A stretch of DNA of 54,998 nt. Source: Haloferax elongans ATCC BAA-1513 (GTDB lineage Archaea; Halobacteriota; Halobacteria; Halobacteriales; Haloferacaceae). Made by a program: the position numbers and the translations under genes. The stretch is taken from NCBI RefSeq assembly GCF_000336755.1, contig NZ_AOLK01000015.1:8023-63020 (forward strand), in the 5' to 3' direction. The notes under the pieces were generated by a model that saw nothing but the letters and a program-made list of their open reading frames with translations, searched no databases and was not told where the DNA came from. Positions within the stretch are counted from its first letter, which is position 1. The number at the start of each line of letters is the position of its first letter. Below, in pieces: positions 16,221 to 19,583 of this stretch.

Positions 16221-16538
16221 CTGGCCTCTGAGTTCGACCCCCATTCTACCCTGTCCCGAGCCGCCTCACCCTGACCCGCCTCACCTCGCGGAGTCGGGGC
16301 CGGCGTCAAGGACGACTATTTTTCTGACACCTGTCCCAGGTAGCAACTAGGTACTGTCTATTTAGTGACCACCTTGACTGGCCTCAGGTCTACTCACCCC
16401 TCGCTTCTCAAACTGATTTCTAGGGGCAGTTCTTTCGCGGATCGAGGTACACAGACTCCGGCACCTTCATGAGATATATTTTAATATTTCATTCAGGCAA
16501 CAAACAATATATAGGGTGGTTATCAAGTGTGTGGTAAG
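16221..16538. other. Spacer before toxin island, turning AT-rich
   Basis: No gene is seen. The segment tctcaaactgatttctaggg (16406-16425) resembles ctcaaactggtttaactagg (about 1284-1303), so both may be remains of the same mobile-element end. From about 16470 the base composition becomes AT-rich. Confidence 0.4.
16506..16515 (+). promoter_or_regulatory. TATA box of DUF4157 toxin gene
   Basis: aatatatagg is centred about 29 nt before the ATG at 16539, the distance for a leaderless start, and supports ATG 16539 over the GTG at 16527. Confidence 0.55.
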
Positions 16539-18074
16539 ATGGGATTTCGCTCTGCGAAAGAGAAGACGAGCGAGGGCCAACAGTCCTCGACCGTCCCGTC
16601 GATTCAGGAGTTGACAGGTGGGTCCGACCGCAGTCGCGGTGGAGGTGAGTCACTACCGGCGCAGGACAGTGAAGCTGGGTTCGGACTTGAAGCGTATCGC
16701 CCCGGGATGGACGTTCAGGTTCAACGCCTCGTCGAGAGCCACGGTGCCAGCCAAGTGCGGCAGTGGGCCGACGAGGGAATGACCGTGGACACGATGGGCA
16801 AACCGCGGGACATGCGACAGTTCCGCGAGCGTCAGAAAGAACGCCCAGCCGAGGTGCCGAAAGATATCGAACGCCGGAACGCGAAATCGGTCCAGCGCAG
16901 CCGCAACGCACATCACGAGGCGTCGAAGGCTGGCGATTCGCAGGTGCCCGATAGCGTTCGGGACGTGATTTCGTCGCCCGGCCAACAGCTCGATAGCTCG
17001 ATTCAACAAACCATCGAGGAGCGCATGGGCGATTCGCTCGGTGACGTGCGAATTCACACTGGCCCGCAGGCCGCCAAAGCCTGTCAGGATATCAACGCTC
17101 GTGCGTTCACTGTCGGGAATCACATCGCGTTCAATCACGGTGAGTACGACCCGAATTCGGCAGAAGGTCAGCACGTGCTGGCTCACGAACTCGCACACGT
17201 TCGCCAGCAGACCGGCGGGGCGGTGTCGATGCTGCCCCAAGAAGGGCTGGAGTTAGAGATCGATCCGGATCCACAGTTAGAGCGGGAGGCCGAGGAAACC
17301 GCTCAGCGCGTGATGCGCGGTGGGGAACTCGGGGTTCACCGGATGCGCCACTCGGAGGTGCACGTTCAGCGTATGCCCTCCAAGTCCGGTCGTGATGATG
17401 TCTCGTCTCTCTCGGCACTTCGTGAGATGGGAGTGAGCGAAGAGCTAATCGGGCAGATACGGCAAGAGGTTGACCCAAACGATCATACTGTGTTCATCAG
17501 AGATATTAAACTAATAGTTGATGAATCCACCAAGGACGTTGGGAGTGACCAAGGAGAGGTAGGTGAAATACTATCCTCTGAAAAGGGATTGTCCAAACGA
17601 TTAGCCGAGAAACAAATGACTGAGACGAGTGACATAGAGAATCTCACCACTATCCCAATGCCAAATACGTTCACGAAAGGCGTTGATATTCAGTGTCCCA
17701 ATGGAGAGAATCCGGAGTATGACAAAGTATTATTGAACGAGGAAACAGGAGAGGTATCTCACGTCGTCGAAGAGAAAACAGGCGGTGGAATCAGCTCAAA
17801 AGCTGATAGAGCCATTTTACAGGCCGAAGATAATCTGAGAACTATACAAGAAGAAGGCATCAATCAGATACTTAACGACAAGTGGATGGATGATGCCCTC
17901 ATATCTGGGCTCTCGAAGGAGGATTTTGAGAATGCTTCTGCTTGCGCGATTGTCCCGAAAGGGATGGACAACAGTGAGACAGCAGACAATATAAGCGAGG
18001 ATCAAATAATGGAGTATCGGTGGAACCCGGTCGAGTTCAACCTCATGTACAAAGTAGTAAACGAGGTGAAGTGA
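16539..18074 (+). CDS. DUF4157 (eCIS-core metallopeptidase) protein with nuclease-like C-terminal effector domain
   Basis: The 511-residue protein has three parts. Residues 1-165 are polar and low in hydrophobics. Residues about 165-285 form a DUF4157 domain (DVRIHTG...ARAFTVGNHIAFN...GQHVLAHELAHVRQQ) with a zinc-peptidase motif HELAH at 216-220. From about 290, after KSGRDD, a lower-GC region begins. It contains D395 (EYDKVLL) and an E411-x-K413 triad (VVEEKTGG) spaced like a PD-(D/E)XK nuclease core. DUF4157 proteins are associated with extracellular contractile injection systems and polymorphic toxins, so I infer a toxin or effector. The next gene, one base away, is the likely immunity gene. 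No signal peptide is seen. The nuclease call is inference. Confidence 0.82.
   Translation: MGFRSAKEKTSEGQQSSTVPSIQELTGGSDRSRGGGESLPAQDSEAGFGLEAYRPGMDVQVQRLVESHGASQVRQWADEGMTVDTMGKPRDMRQFRERQKERPAEVPKDIERRNAKSVQRSRNAHHEASKAGDSQVPDSVRDVISSPGQQLDSSIQQTIEERMGDSLGDVRIHTGPQAAKACQDINARAFTVGNHIAFNHGEYDPNSAEGQHVLAHELAHVRQQTGGAVSMLPQEGLELEIDPDPQLEREAEETAQRVMRGGELGVHRMRHSEVHVQRMPSKSGRDDVSSLSALREMGVSEELIGQIRQEVDPNDHTVFIRDIKLIVDESTKDVGSDQGEVGEILSSEKGLSKRLAEKQMTETSDIENLTTIPMPNTFTKGVDIQCPNGENPEYDKVLLNEETGEVSHVVEEKTGGGISSKADRAILQAEDNLRTIQEEGINQILNDKWMDDALISGLSKEDFENASACAIVPKGMDNSETADNISEDQIMEYRWNPVEFNLMYKVVNEVK
17041..17400 (+). repeat. DUF4157 homology block, copy 1
   Basis: This coding block (DVRIHTG to KSGRDD) is repeated at about 18507-18877 with clear nucleotide similarity. 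The sequence downstream of the block is entirely different in the two copies. Confidence 0.8.
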
Positions 18075-18075
18075 G

Positions 18076-18504
18076 ATGGGTACGTTCAGTTTGATAGTTC
18101 CTGAAGATGAACAGACCATAGAAATCGGGAAAGCCTGTTACCGGTTTCACATAGACCACTCTCAGTACGATAGTGATAAGTCACCAGAGGAGTTGCGTGA
18201 CTACCGAAATTTCAAAGAGAAAATGAACGAGAACGAGAGATTCATGGTGTACGAAAAGGCATCTCACACAATTGTAGACGCCGCAGAACCCCCCATTCAA
18301 CACGTCTTTGACGAGTACCGCGACGATGAGTTTGTCGTCCACGACTCAGAAGGGCTATCGAGATTTGTTGAGGCATTAGAGGCAGCTCGTGAGAATCTGG
18401 ATTCAGATGGAGGAATCATAGACGTGCGTGACAGAAAAATCGAGAAGTGTATCAACATTATCCTGTTCGCAAGAGAGAATAACTACGGGATTTCGTATTC
18501 GTAG
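18076..18504 (+). CDS. Candidate immunity protein for the upstream DUF4157 effector
   Basis: The 142-residue acidic soluble protein (MGTFSLIVPEDEQTIEIGKACYRF...) is not recognised as a named family. It begins one base after the effector stop, is encoded in the same low-GC style, and is followed immediately by a second, displaced toxin cassette. In polymorphic toxin loci the gene directly after the toxin is normally its immunity protein; that is the basis of the call. A sequence-based function cannot be given. Confidence 0.6.
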   Translation: MGTFSLIVPEDEQTIEIGKACYRFHIDHSQYDSDKSPEELRDYRNFKEKMNENERFMVYEKASHTIVDAAEPPIQHVFDEYRDDEFVVHDSEGLSRFVEALEAARENLDSDGGIIDVRDRKIEKCINIILFARENNYGISYS

Positions 18505-18720
18505 GTGGATGACGTACGGATTCACACCAGATCTTCAGTCGCCAAAGCGTGTAAGGACATCAACTCCCGAGCGTTCACCGTTGGCAATCACGTCGCCTTC
18601 AACGCTGGAGAGTACGATCCCGAGAGTGCCGAGGGCCAACACGTTTTAGCCTACGAACTCGCGCACGTCCGCCGGCAAACCCAGGGGCAGTGTCGATGCT
18701 CCCGCAAAAAGGTGAATTAG
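18505..18720 (+). pseudogene. 5'-truncated, frameshifted DUF4157 copy (upstream part)
   Basis: Starting at the GTG directly after the preceding stop, this frame reads DDVRIHT...INSRAFTVGNHVAFNAGEYDPESAEGQHVLAYELAHVRRQT, clearly a second copy of the DUF4157 domain without its first half. The zinc motif HELAH is changed to YELAH. A single missing base near 18688, compared with copy 1, shifts the frame, which ends at 18720, while the homology continues in the frame beginning at 18690. It is a recombination remnant rather than a working peptidase. Confidence 0.82.
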
Positions 18721-18877
18721 AGATTGACCCAGACCTGCGCTTAGAGCGTGAGGCCGAAGAGACTGCCGAGCAGGTGATGCGCGGTGGAAAGTTGGGCATT
18801 CATCGAATGCGACACTCCGAGGTGCACGTTCAACGAGCGAAGGACTTGGAGCATGGCAAAAGTGGTAGGGACGACAG
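18507..18877 (+). repeat. DUF4157 homology block, copy 2
   Basis: Second copy of the block at 17041-17400, diverged by many substitutions and one single-base deletion. It lies directly in front of the colicin-D-like domain, so recombination between the copies would join the full-length protein to this toxin. Confidence 0.8.
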
Positions 18878-19190
18878 AGAGGGAATCGCCAGTGAATTAG
18901 AGTTCCCAGACCGTCAGCTCCAGAAAAAATTCAAACATGCCAAACGCTTCGGAGTAAATGGAAGCTGGAATAAAGAAAATAAAAACCGATTCAATATGGC
19001 GTTGATAAATCACATCGAAAGCCCTGATACAGAACGGATTTCTGGAACATATCGCGGTGAGAAAGTGTTCCACTTCTATAACTCAGAAACGAAAAACAAC
19101 GTCATTACAACAAGAGACGGGGAGTTCATCTCCGGATGGACACTCAGTAACAAACAAGAAGAGCACCTAACAAAAAGTGGAGACCTGTGA
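18690..19190 (+). CDS. Displaced toxin cassette: DUF4157 tail plus colicin-D-like tRNase domain
   Basis: The frame starts at GTG 18690 (or ATG 18696) and gives 166 residues. Residues 1-62 are the DUF4157 tail up to KSGRDD. Residues about 75-166 match the catalytic domain of colicin D, which cleaves the anticodon loop of tRNA-Arg. KFKH (K80, K82, H83) aligns with the colicin D Lys-x-Lys-His containing the catalytic His, GTYRGEKVFHFYNSET matches the central strand region, and FISGW (S148, W150) matches its Ser/Trp pair with the same spacing. All known active residues are kept. It lacks its own N-terminal trafficking region, so it is either silent until recombination or expressed as a short cytoplasmic protein. 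The next gene is its immunity partner. Confidence 0.82.
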   Translation: MSMLPQKGELEIDPDLRLEREAEETAEQVMRGGKLGIHRMRHSEVHVQRAKDLEHGKSGRDDREGIASELEFPDRQLQKKFKHAKRFGVNGSWNKENKNRFNMALINHIESPDTERISGTYRGEKVFHFYNSETKNNVITTRDGEFISGWTLSNKQEEHLTKSGDL

Positions 19191-19200
19191 GGACCTACCG

Positions 19201-19494
19201 ATGAACGATAAAGACATAATACAAAAGTATTCGAAGCTCATTCAGCGATTCATCCAAAACGAAACGACTGCAAGTGAATTTTCTGATGAATATCTGGATG
19301 AATTCATAGAAGAAGACGGAGAGTTCTCTGAGGAAACGTATGAAATTTTGCAGAATATGTTTGCGGAAGCCGAGGCATATTGTGAAAACCCAGAGCTACG
19401 CGGGGAGAGAGATATTGGCGAAGCGGAGTTGCGAAACGTGGCGACTGAAACCGCAACCAAACTAGAGCAGAGGCTGAAAGACACCGACTGTTGA
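19201..19494 (+). CDS. Colicin-D-immunity-like protein
   Basis: The 97-residue highly acidic helical protein (MNDKDIIQKYSKLIQRFIQNETTASEFSDEYLDEF...EILQNMFAEAEAYCENPELR) resembles the colicin D immunity/self-protective family. Members bind the toxin active site and mimic tRNA charge. The family pattern is Y..LI..F....isa.eF...yl..f, then eiL...F.dv.ayc....l. It starts 10 nt after the colicin-D-like toxin gene, the expected place. Size is normal for the family. Confidence 0.82.
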   Translation: MNDKDIIQKYSKLIQRFIQNETTASEFSDEYLDEFIEEDGEFSEETYEILQNMFAEAEAYCENPELRGERDIGEAELRNVATETATKLEQRLKDTDC

Positions 19495-19583
19495 AGCAAC
19501 TCTCGGTGACCGAAGATAGTTTCCCGCACTCTGGGAACCAGTCTGCGTATATATGGGGTATTCTGGACTACGTATAGCTGACC

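What the first reader, a model, noticed from the sequence alone, without database searches (positions are those of the whole stretch)
18690..19494. Colicin-D-type tRNase domain and its immunity protein in an archaeon
The domain keeps the residues that define the colicin D active site (K80, K82, H83, S148, W150, in the same order and spacing as Lys608, Lys610, His611, Ser677 and Trp679), and the next gene matches the colicin D immunity family. Colicin D cuts the anticodon loop of tRNA-Arg, so an archaeal member would imply tRNA-targeting conflict between archaea.
Basis: partly seen in the sequence, partly recalled or inferred. Interest (0 to 1): 0.82.

Follow-up and report, generated by a model that had tools for sequence, protein, structure and literature searches.

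The report
Displaced archaeal colicin-D toxin–immunity cassette
A salt-loving archaeon carries a colicin-D-like RNA-cutting toxin domain and its matching antidote gene. The pair is a displaced spare cassette, with a broken carrier, behind a working-looking toxin gene of the cell's injection machine; the toxin family was already known in archaea.

Summary
ORF 18690-19190 ends in a Colicin_D domain (Pfam E=3e-21; AlphaFold model pLDDT 96.6; best PDB fold match colicin D, TM 0.83). The next gene is a Colicin_immun/ImmD relative.

The reading changes. The ORF is the 3' piece of a broken contractile-injection effector: its carrier domain (eCIS_core/DUF4157) is truncated, frameshifted by one base and has HELAH changed to YELAH. 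It sits behind an intact eCIS_core effector with its own presumed immunity gene. The 3.2-kb island is absent from all 14 congeners searched. Intact eCIS_core–ColD–Imm operons occur in Halovivax and Natronobiforma. In nine haloarchaeal genomes, 21 of 25 truncated carriers lie under 4 kb downstream, same strand, of a full-length carrier, the layout of CDI/Rhs orphan modules.

Best explanation: a displaced toxin–immunity cassette, kept for immunity and/or as a recombination reserve. tRNase activity is likely for the family, unproven for this copy; tRNA-Arg specificity is not inferable. Archaeal ColD toxins with this carrier and ImmD were catalogued in 2012. New member of a known kind; the general orphan layout is the more interesting part.

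The parts
16527..18074 (+). Upstream full-length CIS effector: eCIS_core (DUF4157/PVC-metallopeptidase, HELAH intact) plus an unidentified C-terminal toxin domain that begins after 'VHVQR' (about 17372)
   Evidence: PF13699 1.5e-30; the C-terminal part has no significant Pfam or PDB match; homology to other full-length effectors of the same genome ends at about 17368-17378
18076..18504 (+). Presumed immunity gene of the upstream effector (142 aa, no family match)
   Evidence: position directly behind the effector; no Pfam hit; inference by analogy to haloarchaeal effector-immunity pairs
18505..18720 (+). 5'-truncated eCIS_core remnant, frame 1; starts at GTG directly after the TAG of the preceding gene; HExxH altered to YELAH; out of frame with the toxin from about 18684 on
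   Evidence: PF13699 profile 19-78, 5e-21; 74% DNA identity to the upstream core
18690..18835 (+). Continuation of the carrier remnant in the toxin's frame (one base fewer than the upstream copy in the stretch around 18684), up to 'VHVQR'
18891..19190 (+). Colicin_D (BECR-fold) nuclease domain and stop codon; K80, K82, H83, S148, W150 kept; D614 is R86, K680 is T151
19201..19494 (+). ImmD-family immunity gene (97 aa from ATG 19201; alternative start GTG 19177)
   Evidence: PF09204 4.6e-14; profile to 1tfk_B 0.0014; alignment
16349..19514 (.). Species-specific island (toxin/immunity part 47% GC against 60-64% in the flanks); in the closest congener the flanks (96% and 94% identical) are about 50 bp apart

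Best explanation
The locus is a displaced (orphan) toxin-immunity cassette of the haloarchaeal contractile injection system (CIS). An effector is normally one protein: an eCIS_core carrier followed by a swappable toxin, with an immunity gene behind it. Here an effector with its own toxin and presumed immunity gene holds the full carrier (16527-18504). A second module, the 3' part of a carrier plus a colicin-D-type RNase plus ImmD, lies displaced downstream (18505-19494). The carrier remnant is truncated, frameshifted and lacks the first His of HExxH, so the ColD toxin is probably not delivered from this gene. The immunity gene is intact and most likely protects against ColD-carrying relatives; the carrier repeat (17041-17371 against 18509-18835) could allow recombination back onto the intact carrier. 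Shown: domain identities, fold, truncation and frameshift, repeat, empty site in congeners, intact eCIS_core-ColD-Imm versions elsewhere, recurrence of the layout. Inferred: tRNA as target, immunity function, recombination switching, route of displacement.
For: Colicin_D and Colicin_immun matches. Structure pLDDT 96.6; top five PDB matches are all colicin D, TM 0.80-0.83. Tandem carrier repeat at 74% DNA identity with a one-base loss in the second copy. Intact in-frame eCIS_core-ColD effectors with ImmD relatives directly downstream in Natronobiforma cellulositropha (L009=L019) and Halovivax (L012=L020, L011). Empty site in all 14 congeners. Same genome: 15 eCIS_core matches and a CIS cluster with sheath, two tube proteins, AAA ATPase and two Baseplate_J matches, partly 93% identical to a Haloferax larsenii plasmid. 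In nine genomes 21 of 25 5'-truncated cores lie under 4 kb downstream, same strand, of a full core; none within 4 kb of one on the opposite strand. Most of the 11 loci read show full effector, partner gene, then a truncated core close behind the partner's stop with another C-terminal domain. CDI orphan modules have the same anatomy (PMC4927057, PMC9086364).
Against: The frameshift could be an assembly error in a draft genome; then the module would be a truncated but in-frame ORF starting at GTG 18505, right behind a stop codon, which might be translated by coupling. A -1 slip on the G run at 18684-18687 is also conceivable. No expression data. The intact eCIS_core-ColD gene of L011 also lacks Asp614 (Val), so losing D614 does not by itself mean inactivity. 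No toxicity or immunity assay exists for this pair. Displacement by another module is inferred from anatomy; no intermediate was seen, since all congeners have an empty site.
Confidence: 0.8

Rival explanations
1. Active second effector: the downstream ORF is translated (coupled at TAG-GTG 18502-18507, by frameshifting on the G run, or from GTG 18690) and the truncated carrier still loads ColD into the injection system.
For: GTG lies directly behind the stop of the preceding gene; the toxin ORF is open with the five named active-site residues kept; several truncated modules elsewhere keep long open frames.
Against: Carrier lacks the first 17-18 profile positions and all sequence N-terminal to it, HExxH reads YELAH, one-base frameshift; D614 and K680 changed.
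Confidence: 0.1
2. Stand-alone toxin-antitoxin pair: the toxin ORF and ImmD are now an intracellular tRNase-antitoxin module (island maintenance or stress response), independent of injection.
For: Toxin and immunity genes are adjacent (10 bases apart) and the island is absent from all congeners, so recently gained.
Against: 49 aa of carrier remain fused to the toxin; no regulator; intact relatives are carrier-fused effectors; the orphan layout is general and follows full carriers.
Confidence: 0.06
3. Pure relic: both toxin and immunity genes are decaying leftovers without present function.
For: Frameshift, altered HExxH, D614R, K680T.
Against: Toxin and immunity reading frames are both intact and the fold core is conserved; the immunity gene keeps most family positions.
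Confidence: 0.12

Closest known systems
Colicin D tRNase domain / Pfam Colicin_D PF11429 (Tox-Colicin D of Zhang et al. 2012)
   Same: Fold (TM 0.83), residues K608/K610/H611/S677/W679, ImmD-family partner directly downstream
   Different: Carrier is eCIS_core and not the colicin receptor/translocation domains; D614 is R, K680 is T; host is an archaeon; substrate untested
PVC-metallopeptidase (eCIS_core/DUF4157) polymorphic toxins of haloarchaea, e.g. Halogeometricum borinquense CIS/T6SS effectors (PMC3482391, PMC11566945)
   Same: Carrier domain, variable C-terminal toxin, partner gene downstream, CIS cluster in the same genome
   Different: The window's ColD copy has a truncated, frameshifted carrier and is probably not directly deployable; no ColD payload is named in the H. 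borinquense paper
Orphan cdiA-CT/cdiI and rhs-CT/rhsI modules (PMC4927057, PMC9086364)
   Same: Displaced 3' end of an effector gene, same strand, behind the intact locus, keeps a stretch homologous to the carrier, intact immunity gene
   Different: Carrier and delivery machine are unrelated (eCIS_core/CIS in archaea); switching by recombination not demonstrated here

Membership tests
Colicin_D tRNase (PF11429) | Profile match above curated cut-off | tested here: met
   76 bits against 25, E=3e-21
Colicin_D tRNase (PF11429) | BECR fold like colicin D 1v74/1tfo | tested here: met
   Foldseek TM 0.83, E 7e-10, top five matches all colicin D
Colicin_D tRNase (PF11429) | Residues K608, K610, H611, S677, W679 | tested here: met
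   K80, K82, H83, S148, W150
Colicin_D tRNase (PF11429) | Hxx[ED] (D614) and [TS]xxK (K680) motif positions | tested here: not met
   R86 and T151; D in 73 of 82 rows and K/R in 68 of 82; 7 rows lack D, one of them a full-length archaeal effector (L011). Essentiality of D614 as stated in PMC3482391. Because real members vary here, this lowers confidence in activity, not family membership
Colicin_D tRNase (PF11429) | Cleavage of tRNA-Arg between positions 38 and 39 | not testable with these tools
   needs biochemistry; family members differ in cleavage site
Colicin D immunity (Colicin_immun PF09204/ImmD) | Profile match and position directly behind the toxin | tested here: met
   53 bits against 22; relatives' profile to 1tfk_B E=0.0014
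Colicin D immunity (Colicin_immun PF09204/ImmD) | Neutralises the toxin | not testable with these tools
   no assay
eCIS_core/PVC-metallopeptidase effector | Complete eCIS_core with HExxH, in frame with the toxin | tested here: not met
   truncated, YELAH, frameshifted; a complete core is present in the neighbour 16527-18074 and in L009, L011, L012
CDI/Rhs-type orphan toxin-immunity module | Displaced carrier 3' end + toxin + immunity, same strand, downstream of an intact carrier gene | tested here: met
CDI/Rhs-type orphan toxin-immunity module | Can recombine onto the intact carrier and be deployed | not testable with these tools
   repeat present (74% identity over a 332-column alignment); event not observed

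The most novel reading that the evidence does not exclude
Haloarchaeal contractile injection systems keep arrays of displaced toxin-immunity cassettes behind intact effectors. The shared eCIS_core repeat lets cells swap the fired toxin by homologous recombination while keeping old immunities, an archaeal counterpart of Rhs/CDI toxin switching, and ColD-type RNases are one of the payloads exchanged.
Probability: 0.4. Interest if true: 0.62.

Novelty: new member of a known kind. Interest (0 to 1): 0.42.

Why it matters
It gives a concrete archaeal ColD-immunity pair in a probable Haloferax genome that also encodes a contractile injection system of the kind shown to kill other haloarchaea, so the question 'do archaea fire tRNases at each other?' can be tested in a genus with genetics. 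The truncated-carrier cassettes behind intact effectors in seven of nine genomes suggest that orphan toxin-immunity modules, well studied in bacterial CDI and Rhs systems, are also a regular feature of archaeal injection-system effectors; the papers held and searched here did not describe that.

Tried and rejected
Single-sequence AlphaFold of the domain (pLDDT 57) was discarded in favour of the 48-sequence alignment. phmmer of the immunity protein alone found no ImmD in the PDB; only the family profile did. NCBIfam gave only a below-cut-off match of the immunity ORF to a bacilliredoxin (27 bits against 340), rejected. PADLOC: no match, so not a catalogued anti-phage defence gene. PF11429 in the genus: only the own genome, so no close orthologue for a selection test. 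Variable domain of the upstream effector: only sub-threshold hits (DA1-like 0.011; nothing significant in the PDB); an ExK-like motif was seen by eye and not pursued. Tree of ColD domains: haloarchaeal rows group together, but with weak support (83/84) on few columns, so a single origin is only suggested. Programmed frameshifting at the G run was considered and kept as a minor rival.

Full report
Check of the observation. The C-terminal part of ORF 18690-19190 is a Colicin_D domain (Pfam 3e-21; PDB colicin D by phmmer 8e-13; by family profile 1.7e-34). With a 48-sequence alignment the model reaches pLDDT 96.6, and its five significant PDB matches are all colicin D chains, TM 0.80-0.83. ORF 19177-19494 is a Colicin_immun protein (4.6e-14), and a profile of its relatives finds ImmD. 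The five named residues are present. In an alignment of 82 sequences the first is Asp in 73 rows, and the window is the only Arg. Zhang et al. 2012 call D614 essential. An otherwise intact archaeal effector (L011) has Val there, so activity is doubtful rather than excluded.

What the ORF really is. Its first 49 residues are the tail of an eCIS_core (DUF4157, PVC-metallopeptidase) carrier domain, and the front of that domain lies just upstream in another frame (18505-18720, PF13699 5e-21). Against the intact upstream carrier (16527-18074, PF13699 1.5e-30) the downstream copy is 74% identical in DNA from 18509 to 18835. It lacks the first 17-18 profile positions and everything N-terminal to them, has one base fewer than the upstream copy near 18684, and reads YELAH where the intact copy reads HELAH. 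It begins with GTG directly behind the TAG of the preceding gene.

Origin. The island 16349-19514 is absent from all 14 other genomes of the genus that were searched. In the closest one the flanks (96% and 94% identical) are about 50 bp apart. The variable parts are poor in GC (47% against 60-64% in the flanks). The same genome has 15 eCIS_core matches and a contractile injection cluster with sheath, two tube proteins, AAA ATPase and two Baseplate_J matches; 41% of a 20-kb stretch of that cluster aligns at 93% identity to a Haloferax larsenii plasmid. The host is therefore most likely a Haloferax close to H. larsenii (inference).

Intact relatives. Full-length in-frame eCIS_core-ColD proteins of 383-401 aa (open frames), each followed at once by an ImmD relative, are found in Natronobiforma cellulositropha (L009=L019), Halovivax asiaticus (L012=L020) and a second species of the latter's genus (L011). 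PF11429 occurs in 9 of 391 Halobacteria genomes, 5 of 86 genera, and in the control genome of Methanosarcina acetivorans. Haloarcula-type copies (L014/L026, L016, L017) have another carrier without an eCIS_core match. The haloarchaeal domains group together in a tree, with weak support.

A general layout. In nine eCIS-bearing genomes, 25 carrier fragments lack their 5' end. Of these, 21 lie less than 4 kb downstream, on the same strand, of a full-length carrier, in seven genomes; none lies within 4 kb of a full carrier on the opposite strand. Eleven such loci were read. Most show an intact effector, a partner gene, then a truncated carrier close behind the partner's stop with a different C-terminal part, usually followed by another partner gene. 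A Halobacterium plasmid shows a similar scar. This matches the anatomy of orphan cdiA-CT/cdiI and rhs modules, for which displacement, retained immunity and recombination back onto the carrier have been proposed, the last with experimental support in Salmonella Rhs (PMC4927057; PMC9086364).

Mechanism. Most likely the ColD module was once the 3' end of an injected effector and was displaced when another toxin-immunity module took over the carrier. Domain identities, truncation, frameshift, repeat, empty site and recurrence are shown. That the domain cuts tRNA, that the immunity gene protects, and that the repeat allows switching are inferred. The substrate cannot be read from the family: colicin D cuts tRNA-Arg between 38 and 39, while ColD-like CdiA-CT EC3006 and Kp342 act on tRNA-Ile at the acceptor stem.

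Comparison with what is known. Archaeal Tox-Colicin D with PVC-metallopeptidase carriers and ImmD is in Table 2 of Zhang et al. 2012, and archaeal ColD loci are discussed in PMC6393860. Haloarchaeal injection systems secreting DUF4157 effectors, several of them toxic to Haloferax volcanii and neutralised by a downstream partner, were shown in 2024 (PMC11566945). The ColD pair is therefore a new member of a known kind. No held paper was found that describes orphan cassettes for DUF4157 effectors, but the 2019 mBio survey of archaeal toxins (PMC6509191) could not be read, so priority is not claimed.

Limits. Draft assembly, no expression data, no assays. The genomes are a hand-picked set rich in effectors, so the count shows that the layout recurs, not how frequent it is across haloarchaea.

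Noticed in passing
L133-L143; also window genome L095:8730-9698, L095:10663-11562, L096:5124-6107, L096:6786-7769: Many haloarchaeal eCIS_core effectors are followed by a conserved roughly 300-350 aa partner (starts like MDAxITGExxxVGLSVIDNN; 36-39% identity among four aligned) with no Pfam match, even where the variable C-terminal domains differ; it may be a shared immunity, chaperone or adaptor rather than a toxin-specific immunity. The own-genome members are named by position and length only; they were not aligned.
   Followed up: partly
16527-18074: The variable C-terminal domain of the upstream effector has no significant family match; a stretch reading VVEEKTG could be part of a PD-(D/E)xK-like nuclease (by eye only).
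   Followed up: partly
L099:4548-5839 (G000:C11): Another eCIS_core effector of this genome is split between two frames in its N-terminal region.
   Followed up: no
L095:7277-8794 (G000:C2): Partly duplicated eCIS_core within one ORF with an ambiguous residue (X) at the junction, possibly an assembly artefact at the repeat.
   Followed up: no
L014/L026, L016, L017: Haloarcula-type ColD toxins have a different N-terminal part (with a CNSPC motif in L017) without an eCIS_core match, so archaeal ColD uses at least two carriers.
   Followed up: partly
L132:4745-4878 (Halobacterium sp. BOL4-2 plasmid): Short eCIS_core scar directly behind the gene that follows an intact DUF4157 effector; a transposase gene lies upstream of the effector.
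   Followed up: partly
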